Shown here piece after piece: positions 44,985 through 52,574 of a DNA stretch of 64,000 nucleotides. The position numbers and the translations under genes were made by a program. The first letter of the stretch is position 1. Each line of letters starts with the position of its first letter. Origin of the DNA: Collinsella aerofaciens (GTDB lineage Bacteria > Actinomycetota > Coriobacteriia > Coriobacteriales > Coriobacteriaceae); assembly GCF_020181355.1 (NCBI RefSeq), contig NZ_CP084004.1, positions 2,170,001 to 2,234,000 of the forward strand, written 5' to 3'. The notes under the pieces are model-generated. The model saw nothing but the letters and a program-made list of their open reading frames with translations. It was not told where the DNA came from and did no database searches.

Positions 44985-46124
<1,140 letters not shown>

Positions 46125-46212
46125 AAACTGGAACTCCTTGGTTGCGGTTCATACGCAAACCATTATACGGGCAACCCGCAAGAAGCACCGACTCGACAGA
46201 AACTGATGCATT

Positions 46213-46351
46213 AAACGACTAGTCGTCGGGGACAATCTTCAGCGCCATCTTGCAAAGAAGTGTCCCAATCTGCCGGCACTTAGGGACCGTCCCCAGGTGC
46301 CGGCAAGAGCGTCCCTTTCGACTAGTCATTTAAGAACGTCCCCAACGACTA
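46213..46351. repeat. Composite GGGAC-core palindromes (family C copy 2)
   Basis: CGACTAGTCG (46216) and CGACTAGTCA (46319) bracket a GGGGACAATCTTC...GAAGTGTCCC stem and the hairpin GCCGGCACTT...AGGTGCCGGC (46272-46304) with loop AGGGACCGTCCCC. Same word set as at 7341-7487, in altered order. Confidence 0.75.
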
Positions 46352-46368
46352 CATCTGGGATTATTTCC

Positions 46369-46556
46369 AACGGCCAAGGCAACGCCGATGCTCTGACAAC
46401 GTCAGCGAGCGGTCGCCAGAGCGAACAAATTGGCATGAAAAGAGGACGGCATAGACCTTCTGGTCATGCCGTCCTCTTTGAATGACAAGTTGTCGCTCTG
46501 GTGACCGCGCAGCGTCGGCTGGTCCGCCGTTCGTTAGAACGGCGGAACCTGAGACG
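46369..46556. ncRNA. Structured repeated element, copy 1 (intact)
   Basis: About 188 nt, immediately 3' of the SDR gene. An outer stem GCCAGAGCGA.../...TCGCTCTGG encloses a 14-bp stem AAAGAGGACGGCAT/ATGCCGTCCTCTTT capped by GACC-TTCT-GGTC. A terminal hairpin CCGCCGTTC-GTTA-GAACGGCGG follows. A second copy at 49651 and 51212-51357 keeps the same stems with different bases, which supports selection for RNA structure. Transcribed strand unknown. Confidence 0.6.
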
Positions 46557-46562
46557 TAACCC

Positions 46563-47363
46563 CTACGGCCGCTGGCCCATGCCACCCTCGAGGGTGACGG
46601 TCTCGCCGTTCATGTACTTAAAGTCGGGACCGCAGAGCTGAACGACCACGCGGCCGATTTCCTTCTCGACGTCGCCGTAGTGACCAGCCGGCGGCATGTG
46701 GACGTTGGCCTTGAACGCCTCGGGATAGGCATCCTGGAAGTTCTCGAGCGCAGCGGTCCAAGCAAGCGGGCACACGATGTTGACGTTAATGCCGTCCTTG
46801 CCCCACTCGTTGGCGGCAACGCGGGTCAGGCCGCGGATGCCCTCCTTGGCGGCAGCATAGCTGCACTGGCCATAGTTGCCAAACAGGCCGGCGCCCGAGG
46901 CAAAGTTGACCACGGAGCCCTTGGTCTCCTTCAGGTGCGGATAGGCCTTCTGCATGTACAGATAGGTAGCATACAGACCGGAGTAAATGGCCAGGTTAAA
47001 CTGATCCATGGTGTGATCGGCGATGGTCACGCCCGAGGCGCTAGCCTGAGCATTGTTGACGACGGCGTCGATGCGGCCGAACTCCTCAATGGCCTTGTCG
47101 ATGACGTTCTGGACGACGGCCTCGTTGTCCTGACCAGCCGAGACATCGGCCTGAACAGGCAGAACCTTGACACCGTACTCGGCCTCGAGAGACTCCTTGG
47201 CGGCCTCGAGCTTGGCGACGTTGCGGCCGGTGATGACGAGGTTCGCGCCCTCCTTGGCAAATGCGATATCGATGCCGTAGCCGATGGAGCCAGCGGAACC
47301 GTCCTTAAGCGTGGCCTTGCCGCCGCCGGTGACGATCACGGTCTTACCAGTGAAAAGTCCCAT
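46563..47363 (-). CDS. Short-chain dehydrogenase/reductase
   Basis: A 266-aa SDR. The catalytic YAAAK lies in GNYGQCSYAAAKEG (about residue 165), with upstream Ser in NFASGAG and NNAQ in place of the usual NNAG. The cofactor loop is extended: TGGGKATLKDGSAGSIGYG instead of the compact TGxxxGIG. The C-terminal MNGETVTLEGGMG is typical. The substrate is unknown; gut Coriobacteriia carry steroid and bile-acid SDRs, but nothing here proves that. The ATG at 47363 has AAAGGA. Confidence 0.85.
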   Translation of the reverse strand: MGLFTGKTVIVTGGGKATLKDGSAGSIGYGIDIAFAKEGANLVITGRNVAKLEAAKESLEAEYGVKVLPVQADVSAGQDNEAVVQNVIDKAIEEFGRIDAVVNNAQASASGVTIADHTMDQFNLAIYSGLYATYLYMQKAYPHLKETKGSVVNFASGAGLFGNYGQCSYAAAKEGIRGLTRVAANEWGKDGINVNIVCPLAWTAALENFQDAYPEAFKANVHMPPAGHYGDVEKEIGRVVVQLCGPDFKYMNGETVTLEGGMGQRP

Positions 47364-47657
47364 ACAAAGTCCTTTCAAATCGCGACGGGCGCACCCGCCG
47401 ACTGCGCGCATCCAAATAAACGCGCCAAAAGCTGAAATGCAACTTTAACGGGTTCAAGTGAAAAATAAAGCCCATGGCAGGCGAACGGCGCAACGTCTTT
47501 CGGCGAAGGGAATGTCAAGTAAAAATTGGATAGAGTGGCCGAGTTTTTGCTATCGACGCGAGCCATCGAACACGTTTTGAAACTTTGCTGCGGCGCGCGG
47601 GAAGTCGGCGCGAGACTTTATCATAGGGTGACAAACAACGATGAGGAGCACATGCCT

Positions 47658-49433
47658 ATGACAGACGAGCTGGACCCCCAGACTCAGCAGCATATTGATC
47701 ATTCCGAAGACGCCGTCGACGACTGCGATACTCCTACCTGCGTCGACGCCTCCACCGATGCGCCCGCCACCGCAGATGCGCACGCCGGTGCGGATAAGGC
47801 AACAGACACAGACGATACTGTCGAGCATGATGAAAGCGAGCAGCCGGAGCCGAGCGATGCCGAACCTGACACGGACCCCGCCCCGCAAGCAGCGGGCCCC
47901 ATCGAGGTGTCTTCGGAAGAAGAGCTCGATGCCGTCATGGACTCCATGATGGATGCCGTCAAAGCGATGAAAGACGCCGTGGCCGATGCCGATATTGATG
48001 CCGAGGAAGAGGAGGCCGCCGAGGCGGCCTCGACCTTTGTACCCGGCGAGACCCCCGTTGCCGACCAGGGCAGCACCATGCCCTCGTTTCTGCAGCTCGA
48101 GCACCCCACGATTGGCGCCGATGCGGTCGATCCGCACGCAGCGGACTTTTCTGTGGTCGAGGGCGGTACCGGCAATATCGCCGCGCCGCAGGCTGCCGAT
48201 GCGGACGCTGTCGACACCGCTCGCCCGATCGCCCCGCACTCCCCCGACGCGAACCGCGATCTGGGGACCGCTGTCTCGAACACCGCGAACGCCGTGGGCA
48301 CCTTTATTGCCCAGGGCGCCTCGGCCATGCGCGAGATGAACGCCGCGAAAAAGGCACTTGCCGATGCCCGCGCCCACCTGGCCGAACTTGAGCAGCGCAT
48401 TGTCGATCAGGCCGAGGAGCTCGAGACGCGCCAGGATATCGCAGGCCGCTACGACCAGATCGTCGCCGACCAGCGTCAGGCGATCGCCACAGCGCAAAAG
48501 ACCGCTGCGGCAGCCGAGATTGACCGTGATGCCCACGCCGCCAAAGCGACAGAGCTCAAGAGTCAGCTCGAACAAATGAAGACAGAGGATGACGCGACTG
48601 AGCTCCGCCTGAAGGCCGCGCTCGACGCCGTGGAGGCCCGCGAGGCAAGCTCGCGCGAGACCGGCAACCGCCTCGTTCGACGTCTTGAGGATTCCAAGCG
48701 CATCCGCGACAAGGTGCAGGCCGAGCGAGACGCCGGCATTGCCGCCGCACAACAAACCGTCGACGCCACGCGCGCCCAGCTCGAGACGCTGCGTAATGAG
48801 TATGCCGAGCTGCAACGCAATCCCTCGGCAAATCCCGCCAACTATACGGTGCGCACCAGCGAGCTCTCGATGCAGATCTCCGACACGGCAGATGCCCTGC
48901 GTAAAGCCGAAGAAGATGTCCCGTGCATCACCGCCGACCTTGAGCACTCGCTTGCCGCAGCCGAGCAGGCCGTCGAGCAGGCTCAAGCCCCTATCGCCGA
49001 CGCCAAACGCGCGCACCAAGCCGTGACGACTGAGGCCGATGCCGCGCGCGACGAGCTGCAGACGGCGAAAACTGCCGCCACGACGCGCCAGCGCGAACTG
49101 CGCGAGAAGATCGCCGCCGAGGACAAGGCACGCCGCGACCAAGAGCAAAGCATCGCCAACGCCCAAGCAGATGCCGCACATGCACAGTCGATCATCGAGC
49201 AGGCGACCGAGGTACATGACCATCCAGAGATCACTGAGTCGCTTGCAGGATCCTTGGCCCGAGACAAAGCCGAACACGCCGAGACTGAGCGAGAAGTCGC
49301 CCAGCTCGAGGCCACCGAGGACGCGGTGCGCGAGCGTACCCGCGACTCACGCATCAAATTCACCGGCGCCATCGTCTGCATCATCGCCGTGATTCTGGTG
49401 ATCATCCTGGTCTGGCTGTTCGCGAGCAAGTAA
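47658..49433 (+). CDS. Tail-anchored coiled-coil protein of unknown function
   Basis: 591 aa. Residues 1-110 are acidic and low-complexity (D/E/A/T/P-rich, likely disordered). Residues about 200-555 form a long Ala/Glu/Gln/Arg-rich coiled coil. A single hydrophobic segment near the C-terminus, TGAIVCIIAVILVIILVWLFASK, would anchor it with the bulk in the cytoplasm. The ATG at 47658 is preferred (GGAG 9 nt upstream) over 47652. Family not recognised; a structural or envelope-linked scaffold role is conceivable. Confidence 0.7.
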   Translation: MTDELDPQTQQHIDHSEDAVDDCDTPTCVDASTDAPATADAHAGADKATDTDDTVEHDESEQPEPSDAEPDTDPAPQAAGPIEVSSEEELDAVMDSMMDAVKAMKDAVADADIDAEEEEAAEAASTFVPGETPVADQGSTMPSFLQLEHPTIGADAVDPHAADFSVVEGGTGNIAAPQAADADAVDTARPIAPHSPDANRDLGTAVSNTANAVGTFIAQGASAMREMNAAKKALADARAHLAELEQRIVDQAEELETRQDIAGRYDQIVADQRQAIATAQKTAAAAEIDRDAHAAKATELKSQLEQMKTEDDATELRLKAALDAVEAREASSRETGNRLVRRLEDSKRIRDKVQAERDAGIAAAQQTVDATRAQLETLRNEYAELQRNPSANPANYTVRTSELSMQISDTADALRKAEEDVPCITADLEHSLAAAEQAVEQAQAPIADAKRAHQAVTTEADAARDELQTAKTAATTRQRELREKIAAEDKARRDQEQSIANAQADAAHAQSIIEQATEVHDHPEITESLAGSLARDKAEHAETEREVAQLEATEDAVRERTRDSRIKFTGAIVCIIAVILVIILVWLFASK

Positions 49434-49460
49434 ACCAGCTGCCAAAAAACACTCAACGCA

Positions 49461-49525
49461 GTTGCGGTGAGATAGTTCCTGTTTAGCCATCAAAAAGGCC
49501 AATTCAAGAACTATCTCACCGCAAC
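49461..49525. repeat. Dispersed palindrome, family B copy 4
   Basis: GTTGCGGTGAGATAG...CTATCTCACCGCAAC with TTCCTG and AAGAAC inside. Compensatory A-to-G and T-to-C changes in both arms relative to copies 1-2. It may also terminate the coiled-coil gene (TTTTT follows). Confidence 0.85.
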
Positions 49526-49530
49526 TTTTT

Positions 49531-49559
49531 GGTGCAAAGGGGTCAGGCTACTTTGCACC
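49531..49559. repeat. GGGGTCAGG-core hairpin (family G)
   Basis: GGTGCAAAG/CTTTGCACC arms around GGGTCAGGCTA, a relative of the family A core with different arms. Single copy in the window. Confidence 0.65.
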
Positions 49560-49613
49560 AACTTGGTGAATATAAACCAGTCCCCATTGCGCCAACAACG
49601 TTTGCCCAAATAA

Positions 49614-49650
49614 AACCTGCCAAAATAAACCTGTCCCTTTTTGGCAGGTT
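49614..49650. repeat. CTGTCCC-core hairpin (family H)
   Basis: AACCTGCCAAAA/TTTTTGGCAGGTT arms around AACCTGTCCC. Single copy; it abuts the left half of the split structured element. Confidence 0.65.
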
Positions 49651-49689
49651 GAACCACGGCAACGCCGATGTTTTGGCGCGGACAGACAC
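49651..49689. ncRNA. Structured repeated element copy 2, left fragment
   Basis: CACGGCAACGCCGATG matches the left edge of the copy at 46369 (CAAGGCAACGCCGATG), then is cut by the IS1111-type element. The remainder lies at 51212-51357. Confidence 0.5.
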
Positions 49690-49813
49690 TATGACCCAAT
49701 CCGAGGGCACTAAAAAGATAGGAGCCCCCGCTCGTGACCGCGGGTCGGGGCTGCGACAATGATGTTGAAGTGCCATAGGCGCAGCCGCGCCGCAACGAGG
49801 TTGGGAGGCTCCC

Positions 49814-50935
49814 ATGCCAAAGTATTCTACCGCGTTCGGGATGGACGTCCACCTGAGGTCGACCACCGTCTGCGCCCTCGACGCGGACACCGGCGAGGCC
49901 GTGACGAGGAGGTTCCCCGGCAACCCCTGGGGCGAGATCGCCGGGTGGATGGATGGGTTCCCCGGGCCGTCGCTCGCGGCCTACGAGAGCGGCTACCTCG
50001 GCTTCGCCCCGCAAAGGGAGCTCGCCGGGCTCGGCATCGAGTGCGTCGTCGCCGCGGTCTCGAAGATCCCCAGGTCGGCCGCCGACTCGGCCTCCAAGAA
50101 CGACAGGAACGACGCCGCCAGGATGGCCAAGGCGATACTCGCCCACGACATCTCCCCCGTATGGGTCCCCTCCCCCGAGGTCGAAGGCATCAGGGACCTC
50201 GCCGGCGCCTACGACGGGGCGACCGCGCGCCTGGCGACCGCCAAGCAGCGGCTGCTCGCCTTCCTCGCAAAGCGGGGGTTCGTCTACGGCGGCACCACGC
50301 CCGCCGGCAACCCGAGGAAGTACTGGGCCTACGACTTCCTGAGGTGGCTCGACAAGGTCAGGCCGGAGGACGATGGCGGGGTTCGGGCGCTCGCCGCCCT
50401 GAGGAACGAGGTCGAGGCCGCGGCGGAGGCCCGGGCGGACCTGCTCTCCGAGTACAGGGCCGCCGTGGATGCCGGCCCGATCGCCGCGGAGGTGGCCGCC
50501 CTCCAGTCGATCAAGGGCTGCGCCTTCGCGCTGGCCGCAGCCTTCTCGGCCGAGGTCGGCGACTTCACGAGGTTCCGTTCCGGAAGGCAGGTCACGGCCT
50601 ATTTCGGCCTCGCGCCGAGTCAGAGGTCGAGTGGCGACTCCGTGCGGCTCGGAGGCATCAGCGGTGCGGGCAACGCGCTCGTGAGGAAGCTGGCCGTTGA
50701 GGGCTCATGGTGCTACGCCGCGGCACGGCACCAGCCGAAGCTCATGCCAAGGGACACGGGCGTGCCCCTCGAGATAAGGATGCACGGGAGGAAGGGGTCC
50801 GAGCGGCTCCTGCGGCGGCGCGAGGAGATGCTCGCCCGCGGCATGCCCGCGGCGAAGGCCAACGCGGCCACCGCGGCCGAGCTCGTGAGGTGGCTCTGGG
50901 CCCTCGGCATGATGTGCCGGGAGGGCGCGGAATAG
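49814..50935 (+). CDS. IS1111-group (IS110 family) transposase
   Basis: A 373-aa DEDD transposase. The N-terminal domain shows GMDVHLRSTTV, AYESGYLGF and SASKNDRNDAARMA acidic positions; the C-terminal Tnp20 domain shows LQSIKGCAFALAAAFSAEVGDFTRF and YFGLAPSQRSSGDSVRLGGISGAGNALVRKLA. The ATG at 49814 follows GGGAGG. It appears intact. It is only distantly related to the IS110 transposase at 12427. Confidence 0.93.
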   Translation: MPKYSTAFGMDVHLRSTTVCALDADTGEAVTRRFPGNPWGEIAGWMDGFPGPSLAAYESGYLGFAPQRELAGLGIECVVAAVSKIPRSAADSASKNDRNDAARMAKAILAHDISPVWVPSPEVEGIRDLAGAYDGATARLATAKQRLLAFLAKRGFVYGGTTPAGNPRKYWAYDFLRWLDKVRPEDDGGVRALAALRNEVEAAAEARADLLSEYRAAVDAGPIAAEVAALQSIKGCAFALAAAFSAEVGDFTRFRSGRQVTAYFGLAPSQRSSGDSVRLGGISGAGNALVRKLAVEGSWCYAAARHQPKLMPRDTGVPLEIRMHGRKGSERLLRRREEMLARGMPAAKANAATAAELVRWLWALGMMCREGAE

Positions 50936-50939
50936 ACAT

Positions 50940-51190
50940 GGCCCCCGTCCCGGCGAGCCGGGCGGCCTTCGGGGATACCCCCTATTTCGCTGTGCGCGCG
51001 GAGCCCTCCGCATGCGCCTCGACAGACTTGGGGAACCCCGCCGAAGGAATGGAGTGCGGGCCGACAGAACGGTATCCGCGGATATGAGACTGAGCCGAAG
51101 GCGTCGATTACATGCCGGGGGCGGACCGGGACGGGTTAACGGCAGGCCCCGCCGACCGATTGCAAGCGGTCGGCGGGGCCATTGTGGCTC
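50940..51190 (+). ncRNA. Candidate bridge RNA region of the IS1111-type element
   Basis: In IS1111-group elements the bridge RNA is encoded in the right end. This 250-nt non-coding stretch is the larger non-coding end and contains a 13-bp perfect stem, GGCCCCGCCGACC/GGTCGGCGGGGCC (51144-51180). Guide loops were not computed. Confidence 0.4.
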
Positions 51191-51211
51191 TTGACAGCGG
51201 ATTGGGTCATA

Positions 51212-51357
51212 TGAGCGAAAGCCCGCCAGGGCGAGCAAGGTGCCTTGAAGCGAGGTGGCATTGACCTTCTGGTCATGCCGCCGAAGTTGAAAGGCAGATT
51301 GCCGCTCTGGCGGGTTTGCAGCGTCGAGCAGTTACGCGGTTCGTAGAACCGCGTAAC
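51212..51357. ncRNA. Structured repeated element copy 2, right fragment
   Basis: Outer stem CCCGCCAGGGCG.../...CGCTCTGGCGGG, inner stem GGTGGCAT/ATGCCGCC capped by TGACC-TTCT-GGTCA, then terminal hairpin AGTTACGCGGTTC-GTA-GAACCGCGTAACT ending at the queA stop codon. Stems differ in sequence from the 46369 copy but pair in the same places. The shared core is GACCTTCTGGTCATGCC. Confidence 0.6.
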
Positions 51358-52574
51358 TAACAAATGAGCATGGCGTCGCCAAAGCTGAAGAAGCGGTAAC
51401 GCTCCTCGATAGCAGCAGCGTAGGCATCCATGATCTGGTCGCGGGTGGCAAGTGCGCTCACGAGCATCATGAGCGTGGAGCGCGGCACGTGGAAGTTAGT
51501 GATCAGTGCGTCGACCACGTGATAGGTCGAGCCAGGCATGAGGTAGAGCTGCGTTGTCGCGTTCTCGCGTACCACGATGTCACCGCGGCCAAGCGTGTCG
51601 GCCCCGTCCTCGCGGTCCTCAAAATAGCGCGCCGTCACGGCCGGATCGGACACCGGCGCGTCCGCGTCAAAAGCGCTCTCGAGCGAGCGCACGGCGGTGG
51701 TGCCGACGGCGATCACGCGGTGTCCCTCGGCCTTCGCCTTATGCACGGCGTCGACAACCTCCTGCGATACGTGGTAACGCTCGGTGTGCATGACGTGCTG
51801 CGTAGGGTCGTCCTCCTCCACCAAGCGGAAGGTATCAATGCCCACCTCGAGCTCGACGGCGGCAAACTTCGCACCCTTGGCCTCGATAGCGGCCATGAGC
51901 TCGGGGGTAAAGTGCAGACCCGCCGTGGGAGCGGCAGCCGAGTGCTCCTCCTTCATGGCGTAGACGGTCTGGTACTTCTCGGGATCGCCCTCGTAATCGG
52001 TAATGTAGGGCGGCAGCGGCACGTGGCCGGCAGCATGGATGGCCTCGTCGAGCGTGCGCGGGTCGCCGGCGGCATTGCAGCCGGCCGGCTCAAAACGCAC
52101 CAGGCGGCCGCCGCGGCTATCGGTGACAAAGTCGACGACCTCGGCCGTCAGCACCACGGGAGCCCCCACGGGCGCATGGGCGCCACCGGCGCGATACTCA
52201 ATCTGTGCACCGGGCTTCAGGCGCTTGCCCGGCTTGACCAGGCACTCCCAAACATGGCCCAGCGGGTCAATATCCTCGCGGCGCTTGAGCAGCAGCGTCT
52301 CGACCACGCCGCCCGAGCCGGCCTTGCGACCGATCAGGCGGGCCGGCATCACGCGCGTCTTGTTGATGACGAGCACATCGCCCGGCTCGATATAATCGAT
52401 GATGTCGCGGAAGATGCGGTGCTCGACGGTGCCGCCGTGCTCCAGCGGCATTCCCGCCTGGGAGCCTTTGCGATCCACCACCAGCAGGCGGCAGGAGTCG
52501 CGCGGCTCGGCAGGCGCTTGGGCGATGAGCTCTTCGGGCAGGTTATAGTCAAAATCATCGGTACGCATAGACAC
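51357..52574 (-). CDS. queA: S-adenosylmethionine:tRNA ribosyltransferase-isomerase
   Basis: Adds the ribosyl moiety of SAM to preQ1-tRNA, making epoxyqueuosine. It is 405 aa, longer than the usual 340-360. DFDYNLPEELIAQ, INKTRVMPARLIGRK, HVPLPPYI and TAGLHFTPEL are family blocks. The extra length lies in the middle barrel (around GGAHAPVGAPVV and the PAGCNAAGDPRTLDEA insert). The GTG at 52574 has AGGAG at 8-nt spacing; ATG 52568 is the alternative. queH lies directly upstream. Confidence 0.95.
   Translation of the reverse strand: MSMRTDDFDYNLPEELIAQAPAEPRDSCRLLVVDRKGSQAGMPLEHGGTVEHRIFRDIIDYIEPGDVLVINKTRVMPARLIGRKAGSGGVVETLLLKRREDIDPLGHVWECLVKPGKRLKPGAQIEYRAGGAHAPVGAPVVLTAEVVDFVTDSRGGRLVRFEPAGCNAAGDPRTLDEAIHAAGHVPLPPYITDYEGDPEKYQTVYAMKEEHSAAAPTAGLHFTPELMAAIEAKGAKFAAVELEVGIDTFRLVEEDDPTQHVMHTERYHVSQEVVDAVHKAKAEGHRVIAVGTTAVRSLESAFDADAPVSDPAVTARYFEDREDGADTLGRGDIVVRENATTQLYLMPGSTYHVVDALITNFHVPRSTLMMLVSALATRDQIMDAYAAAIEERYRFFSFGDAMLIC

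What the first reader, a model, noticed from the sequence alone, without database searches (positions are those of the whole stretch)
46369..51357. A ~190-nt structured element occurs twice with compensatory stem changes
Copies at 46369-46556 and at 49651-49689 plus 51212-51357 share GGCAACGCCGATG, GCCAGRGCGA, GACCTTCTGGTCATGCC, CGCTCTGG and GCAGCGTCG in the same order. The stems between them differ in sequence but still pair (14-bp versus 8-bp inner stem, two unrelated terminal hairpins). Both end at the stop codon of a minus-strand gene (SDR, queA). This pattern suggests selection on RNA or cruciform structure. I do not recognise a known family.
Basis: seen in the sequence. Interest (0 to 1): 0.82.

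Follow-up and report, generated by a model that had tools for sequence, protein, structure and literature searches.

The report
Stop-codon-anchored structured repeat in gut bacteria
The two look-alike stretches are copies of a ~190-base folding repeat that occurs dozens of times in Collinsella and related gut bacteria, mostly directly behind the stop codons of genes and facing one way, and whose folded shape has been kept by evolution.

Summary
The window copies belong to a dispersed family: 28 strong copies in this genome, matches in 35 of 43 same-genus genomes and 70 of 297 genomes drawn from the order. Rfam has no match. A unit is a ~114-nt hairpin P1 with G·A-rich loops and a 1-nt bulge, a short linker, and a ~28-nt hairpin P2. 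Pairing is conserved: 23 of 40 pairs show two-sided changes in an alignment not fitted to the structure. G·U over A·C counts and recurrent UUCG loops mark the + strand as the folded one. The unit lies directly behind the stop codon of an antisense gene: 13 of 13 copies in 300 kb of annotated DNA against 7.2% by random placement, 24 of 28 here, 28 of 35 in other species and genera. At fixed sites P1 types swap and copies are gained or lost; one copy stands where relatives have a terminator-like hairpin. Copy 2 is split by an IS110 element. Best reading: a REP/BOX-like non-autonomous repeat specialised for gene 3' ends; mobiliser and host role unknown.

The parts
46369..46401 (+). left (5') module of copy 1
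   Evidence: GGCAACGCCGATG... shared with other copies
46402..46516 (+). P1, long hairpin of copy 1 (type A, 14-bp inner stem)
   Evidence: R1 match 120.4 bits; fold
46521..46548 (+). P2, terminal hairpin of copy 1
   Evidence: pattern scan of own genome
46563..47369 (-). SDR oxidoreductase gene whose stop codon the element faces (start codon chosen by me inside ORF 46563-47411)
   Evidence: adh_short_C2 and adh_short
49651..49685 (+). left piece of copy 2, cut off by the IS110 insertion
   Evidence: sequence; junction comparison
49686..51213 (+). IS110-family insertion sequence inside copy 2 (ends inferred from junctions; AG present on both sides)
   Evidence: same junction in 9 distinct places; second copy 98.9% identical over 1703 nt, element flank included
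49814..50935 (+). IS110 transposase ORF, 373 aa
   Evidence: Transposase_20 6.6e-20, DEDD_Tnp_IS110 2e-10
51214..51325 (+). P1, long hairpin of copy 2 (type A', 8-bp inner stem)
   Evidence: R1 match 51212-51325, 120.2 bits
51331..51357 (+). P2, terminal hairpin of copy 2, last base shared with the queA stop codon
51357..52574 (-). queA, the anchored gene
   Evidence: Queuosine_synth 1.3e-123

Best explanation
A family of short, non-autonomous, structured interspersed repeats of Coriobacteriales, of the same general kind as REP, ERIC and BOX sequences. SHOWN: the unit is a left module, P1, linker and P2; P1 is kept by compensatory change and its + strand is the better-folding one; most copies sit right behind a TAG or TAA stop codon with P2 towards the gene and the folded strand antisense to it; copies are present or absent between close strains; P1 types swap at fixed sites; some sites carry ordered half-elements. 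INFERRED: new copies arise by a directional insertion or copying process at gene ends that needs the folded strand and an unidentified trans-acting enzyme; afterwards P1 cassettes are exchanged between strains or copies by recombination through the conserved linker. INFERRED and weaker: once in place the hairpins serve as the 3'-end structure or terminator of the host gene, which makes the site tolerable and keeps it occupied.
For: Copy number and spread. Structure. Strand: G·U 56 against A·C 23, + fold better in 43 of 44 non-redundant copies; UUCG is the commonest apical loop, 9 of 44. Anchoring: 13 of 13 within -3 to +36 nt against 7.2% for random placement; 24 of 28 in the own genome, -10 to +95 nt; 28 of 35 in other species and genera, -10 to +70 nt, mirror side 6 of 35; one GTAG-type REP family in the same DNA 2 of 13 within 10 nt. 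Turnover: 8 of 14 orthologous sites have more than one P1 type; one site has full, P1-deleted, remnant and empty alleles among 10 genomes; 9 of 78 loci with hits are composites, in the order 3-5-5 (6) or 3-3-5 (3) from the stop codon. Terminator-like hairpin in its place: site 2164632, G001 and G002, by eye.
Against: No clean empty site with a target duplication was found. No linked transposase: R1 matched at only 2 of 40 partly overlapping loci around Y1 transposase genes, one beside an IS200-like gene and one weak. Strict one-way anchoring is unusual for REP-like repeats. Type swapping can be explained by ordinary recombination between strains, and some composites share one ancestry. The terminator role has no direct support: a simple scan found no terminator at either copy, though it allows no bulges. 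P2 shows no strand preference. No transcript data were available. The strand result is partly circular because the model fixes the orientation.
Confidence: 0.55

Rival explanations
1. A host-serving 3'-end cassette: the gene-strand transcript folds P2 and P1 behind the stop codon and terminates or protects the mRNA. Copies spread only by recombination, not as a mobile element.
For: Position behind stop codons; stands where G001 and G002 have a terminator-like hairpin and where some outgroup Collinsella (L118, L121, L124) have one behind queA, all by eye; a T-rich stretch follows the inner stem on the gene strand in the Collinsella types (by eye).
Against: G·U bias and UUCG loops belong to the other strand; 8 of 43 genus genomes have no match (strict filters); by eye 7 of 14 sites lack an intact P1 in at least one of five genomes.
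Confidence: 0.25
2. A single-stranded-DNA repeat moved by a Y1/RAYT transposase, as proposed for GTAG REPs.
For: The 6 Y1-free genus genomes carry no element, or one weak match in G015; DNA parameters also favour the + strand, 44 of 44.
Against: 3 of the 8 element-free genomes (G026, G028, G039) do have a Y1 gene; Y1 genes with clear flanking inverted repeats (L198, L200, L202) carry other repeats; element at 2 of 40 Y1 loci; co-occurrence may only reflect the C. aerofaciens clade; UUCG loops point to RNA.
Confidence: 0.1
3. A family of trans-acting small RNAs expressed antisense to gene 3' ends.
For: The folded strand is the antisense one; RNA-type loops.
Against: The simple scan of 46100-51500 shows no promoter-like site on the + strand; many near-identical copies and fast turnover are unlike sRNA genes.
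Confidence: 0.07
4. It is the end of a known mobile element (IS110 or IS200).
For: An IS110 splits copy 2; an IS200-like gene lies beside one copy.
Against: IS110 junctions lie inside the element at one fixed point and many uninterrupted copies exist.
Confidence: 0.02

Closest known systems
REP sequences (GTAG and CGTC superfamilies; PMC3733652, abstract and passages read)
   Same: Palindromic, multi-copy, extragenic, mostly downstream of genes; REPs are targets of insertion sequences (PMC1525189, abstract read).
   Different: REPs are 20-40 nt hairpins with a tag; this is ~190 nt with two hairpins, G·A-rich loops, compensatory change across the order and stop-codon anchoring. A GTAG-type REP family occurs beside it and is not anchored (2 of 13).
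BOX, RUP and SPRITE repeats of Streptococcus pneumoniae (PMC3049150, passages read)
   Same: Small structured repeats thought to be parasitic; BOX is modular; in 36 cases a BOX copy supplies the stop codon of a gene.
   Different: No sequence link was tested or seen; here P1 and P2 types combine freely, orientation to the gene is fixed in most copies, and the range is an order.
ERIC/IRU repeats (recalled; abstract starts in the listing only)
   Same: About 127 nt, long imperfect palindrome, intergenic.
   Different: Enterobacterial; not compared by sequence here.
IS621/IS110 targeting of REPs (recalled; search listing)
   Same: An IS110 member uses an intergenic palindromic repeat as its fixed target.
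   Different: Here the target is this repeat, in Collinsella; guide RNA not examined.

Membership tests
Rfam families (release 15) | score above gathering threshold | tested here: not met
   0 matches in the window; 12 weak matches at E up to 10, none on P1 or P2 of either copy
GTAG/CGTC REP | single 20-40 nt hairpin with GTAG or CGTC tag at its foot | tested here: not met
   two hairpins of ~110 and ~28 nt; a CGTC stands near P1 and P2 in many copies, not in all and not directly at the P2 stem (by eye)
GTAG REP | copies flank a RAYT gene | tested here: not met
   2 of 40 partly overlapping Y1 loci carry a match, one beside an IS200-like gene and one weak
Small interspersed structured repeats (REP/ERIC/BOX kind, broad sense) | multi-copy, non-coding, intergenic, folding, polymorphic between strains | tested here: met
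MITE | terminal inverted repeats and target-site duplication | tested here: inconclusive
   no terminal inverted repeats seen by eye; at one site TA stands on both sides but the empty allele is not clean
Intrinsic terminator | GC-rich stem followed by a T run on the gene strand | tested here: inconclusive
   scan finds none at the copies but allows no bulge; T-rich stretch by eye in Collinsella types, weaker in other genera
IS110 element end | present only at IS boundaries | tested here: not met
   uninterrupted copies

The most novel reading that the evidence does not exclude
A bacterial SINE-like retroelement: the + strand RNA is copied into DNA from its 3' end (P2), primed by the gene strand at a TAG/TAA stop codon. 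This would explain together the fixed orientation, the abutment of P2 on the stop codon, the folded strand being antisense, the lack of TGA among adjoining stop codons (0 of 24 in the own genome; 0 of 13; 0 of 28 by the longest ORF listed; one TGA seen at another strain's site), and the half-elements that keep the P2 side next to the gene (3 of 9 composites).
Probability: 0.12. Interest if true: 0.92.

Novelty: new variant of a known kind. Interest (0 to 1): 0.66.

Why it matters
It adds a large family of structured repeats to common human gut bacteria; the paper searches showed no description of it. It is unusual in being tied, in one orientation, to stop codons, so it makes a concrete question testable: how can a repeat find gene ends? 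It also gives a fixed natural landing site for a Collinsella IS110 element, and it accounts for contig breaks and allele differences at gene 3' ends such as that of queA.

Tried and rejected
Rejected: an Rfam family, including Collinsella-1 (RF01700 in the table of PMC2864571, passages read); an IS end; a RAYT partner by adjacency; phage or plasmid cargo (no phage record at E 1e-3; one plasmid record is a 900-kb record that carries tgt, queA, rpoB and rpoC; four viral contigs match a 17-mer but carry no element); a replication-strand explanation (dnaA at 752,932; taking the terminus as opposite, 22 of 28 copies have the folded strand against fork direction, counted by eye, which may only follow gene orientation).

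P2 showed no strand preference (29 G·U against 29 A·C over 55 hairpins, some of them shadow rows or over-extended). Left-module to linker pairing (GCCGATG with CGTCGGC) was seen by eye in some copies and is not general in single folds.

Dropped rows and soft spots: one search dropped three coding chance hits; model A1 also left out the copies at 610893, 877741 and 628359. One search dropped 9 opposite-strand shadow rows of A2; one search kept them. One search left out L088, L089 and L094, and its L063 and L090 are identical. In one search site 202721 (five genomes) and one 1641190 allele read 'none' because the type patterns missed them; its printed count of 7 sites is therefore not used, and the 7 of 14 given here is by eye. 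In one search the random window was -2 to +36, which holds 12 of the 13 copies; one search repeats it for -3 to +36. The 300 kb were chosen because they held known copies. Searches scored only 12 and 9 candidates per genome, so their misses are soft. One search listed 20 of 1,561 papers.
Full report
OBSERVATION. The window lies at 2,170,001-2,234,000 of contig 1 of a 2.28-Mb genome; close relatives are named Collinsella aerofaciens. Both copies are as described. The block GACCTTCTGGTCATGCC with up to 2 mismatches has 29 places in the genome, most of them further copies and some coding chance hits. A covariance model R1 from 22 own copies (A1) finds 43 rows in the genome: 28 distinct copies of 71 bits or more, 11 opposite-strand shadows of these, and 4 weaker places. 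In the genus 35 of 43 genomes match, 21 of them with 22 or more rows, shadows included. In a draw from the order, 70 of 297 genomes and 17 of 107 genera match (12 candidates scored per genome). In 22 genomes outside the genus, picked because they had matched, from 13 genera, there are up to 21 rows. In a draw from the phylum 9 of 396 match, all in the own family (9 candidates scored per genome, so weak copies in other families were missed).

ANATOMY. Read on the + strand: a variable left module of about 35 nt; AGCGA; P1, a hairpin of about 110 nt; GCAGCG and a linker of about 8 nt; P2, a hairpin of about 28 nt with a 9-12-bp stem, perfect in most copies and missing in some. P1 has a variable outer stem, internal loops rich in G·A, a variable inner stem with a single bulged A or T in most copies, and an apical loop that is mostly C(UUNN)G. 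Within one genome there are several P1 types (called A, A', B, C and D here). Copy 1 is type A, copy 2 type A'.

SELECTION ON STRUCTURE. On the MAFFT alignment A1, 23 of 40 RNAalifold pairs show two-sided changes that keep the pair. On A2 (104 rows, 95 distinct, fitted to the model, 9 of them shadows) 95.7% of cells pair, 37 of 40 pairs have two-sided changes, the covariation score is 0.643 against 0.173 shuffled (0 of 500), and slid structures pair in 29-45% of cells. Among 44 non-redundant copies there are 1567 Watson-Crick, 56 G·U, 23 A·C and 86 other cells, and the + strand folds better than its complement in 43 of 44 with RNA and 44 of 44 with DNA parameters. On A1 alone G·U is 24 and A·C 6. 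UUCG is the commonest apical loop, 9 of 44, seven of these closed by C-G. That UUCG favours RNA over DNA is an argument made for the STAXI motif in PMC2864571 (passage). P2 gives no strand signal.

POSITION. In 300 kb of annotated C. aerofaciens TSDC17.2-1.1 sequence (stretches chosen because they held known copies), R1 finds 13 distinct copies (18 rows with shadows, the weakest copy at E = 1.4e-4). In 13 of 13 the stop codon of an annotated antisense gene lies from 3 nt inside to 36 nt beyond the core's 3' end, which is directly behind P2 where P2 is present. Random placement in DNA not covered by simple gene calls gives 7.2% for that window. Own genome: 24 of 28, window -10 to +95 nt; several of these sites are orthologous to those in TSDC17.2-1.1. 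Other species and genera: 28 of 35, window -10 to +70 nt, mirror side 6 of 35. One GTAG-type REP family in the same DNA plus the window: 2 of 13 within 10 nt of a stop, so anchoring is not a property of every repeat there. Adjoining stop codons: TAG 16, TAA 8, TGA 0 of 24; TAG 7, TAA 6, TGA 0 of 13; background TGA 7 of 55 and 44 of 236 by the same simple gene calls. One TGA neighbour was seen, at site 348625 in G007. The lack of TGA is suggestive only.

TURNOVER. Fourteen own-genome sites were compared with G001, G002, G007 and G018. Eight of 14 carry more than one P1 type. By eye 7 of 14 lack an intact P1 in at least one genome: 681383, 2164632, 1641190, 11994, 1543978, 1801669, 491773. At 2164632, G001 and G002 have a terminator-like hairpin where G000, G007 and G018 have the element. 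At queA all 18 complex loci L098-L115 and the window carry an element or part of one (L100 and L106 are cut by the contig end), and types B, C and A' occur with both P2 types; the more distant loci printed show none there, and some (L118, L121, L124) show terminator-like hairpins by eye. At the L071 site, among 10 genomes, 5 are empty (stop codon, REP, terminator-like hairpin), 1 is full, 2 have lost P1 between GACG repeats, and 2 have remnants fused to a REP. Of 90 sequences given, 78 had element hits; 66 were simple, 9 composite and 3 partial. Of the composites 6 show a whole element followed by an extra RNA-5' half and 3 show an extra RNA-3' half between the stop codon and a whole element; no other order occurs, though three of the six share one relic at the SDR site. 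This fits repeated directional arrival at the stop codon followed by deletion of hairpin arms; recombination alone is not excluded.

INSERTION SEQUENCES. Copy 2 is split by an IS110-family element. Its ends are found at the same point of the element (GACAG / AGCGA) in 9 distinct places among the held loci, in types A' and B and in two relic-like copies. This resembles IS insertion into REPs (PMC1525189, abstract). The loci were fetched for the element or for queA, so this is not a survey of all copies of this IS.

PARTNER. PF01797 Y1 transposases occur in 36 of 42 genus genomes; the 6 without have no element or one weak match, but 3 of the 8 element-free genomes do have Y1. Y1 genes with clear flanking inverted repeats carry other repeats and the element is at 2 of 40 Y1 loci. 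No partner is claimed.

INTERPRETATION. A selfish or commensal structured repeat specialised for gene 3' ends fits best. A pure host terminator cassette is the main rival. The most novel open reading is a SINE-like RNA-copied element primed at stop codons. Nothing here measures transcription, termination or transposition.

LITERATURE. Searches for Collinsella with 'intergenic repeat' (0 papers), with 'repetitive extragenic palindromic' (4 papers), with RNA-motif terms (20 of 141 listed), and for Coriobacteri with repeat terms (20 of 1,561 listed) showed no description of this family in what was listed or in the passages read. PMC8040213 (passages) reports 250 palindromic candidates in supplements that could not be read here and might include pieces of it. 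PMC3733652 has none of the words Collinsella, Atopobium, Eggerthella, Olsenella or Actinobacteria in its main text.

Mended on recount: the random-placement window, the number of sites in the joined query (14, not 15), Y1 genes in element-free genomes, relic-like IS110 targets, and the wording on outgroup terminators.

Noticed in passing
window 49686-51213 and L009: IS110-family element whose ends lie at one fixed point inside this repeat in 9 distinct places. Another IS110-family gene stands just beside the copy behind tyrS in L308.
   Followed up: partly
L198 and L200 (own genome, about 2.06 and 2.03 Mb): RAYT-like Y1 genes (269 and 263 aa ORFs) flanked by inverted REP-like repeats, a RAYT-type system in Collinsella.
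   Followed up: partly
window 49460-49526: A strong 67-nt palindrome (GTTGCGGTGAGATAGTTC...) between the ORF ending at 49433 and copy 2; similar stretches lie behind the element in other strains. Probably another repeat family.
   Followed up: no
NZ_OY725717.1: A 899,693-bp record labelled plasmid 6 of C. aerofaciens carries tgt, queA, RNA polymerase subunit and ribosomal protein genes, so it looks like a chromosome piece.
   Followed up: no
L011 7933-8046 (own genome 610832-610945): A copy whose apical loop reads AGAA instead of TTNN, as if the tip of the hairpin had been inverted.
   Followed up: no
L105 and L179: An IS200-like transposase gene sits beside the inner stem of a copy of the repeat (behind queA in L105).
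   Followed up: no
window 47664-49433: 589-aa ORF between SDR and queA that looks coiled-coil with a C-terminal membrane segment (by eye); no Pfam match.
   Followed up: no
L100, L103, L106, L110, L112, L113: Draft contigs of C. aerofaciens end inside or just past the element behind queA, so the repeat or its IS breaks assemblies.
   Followed up: no
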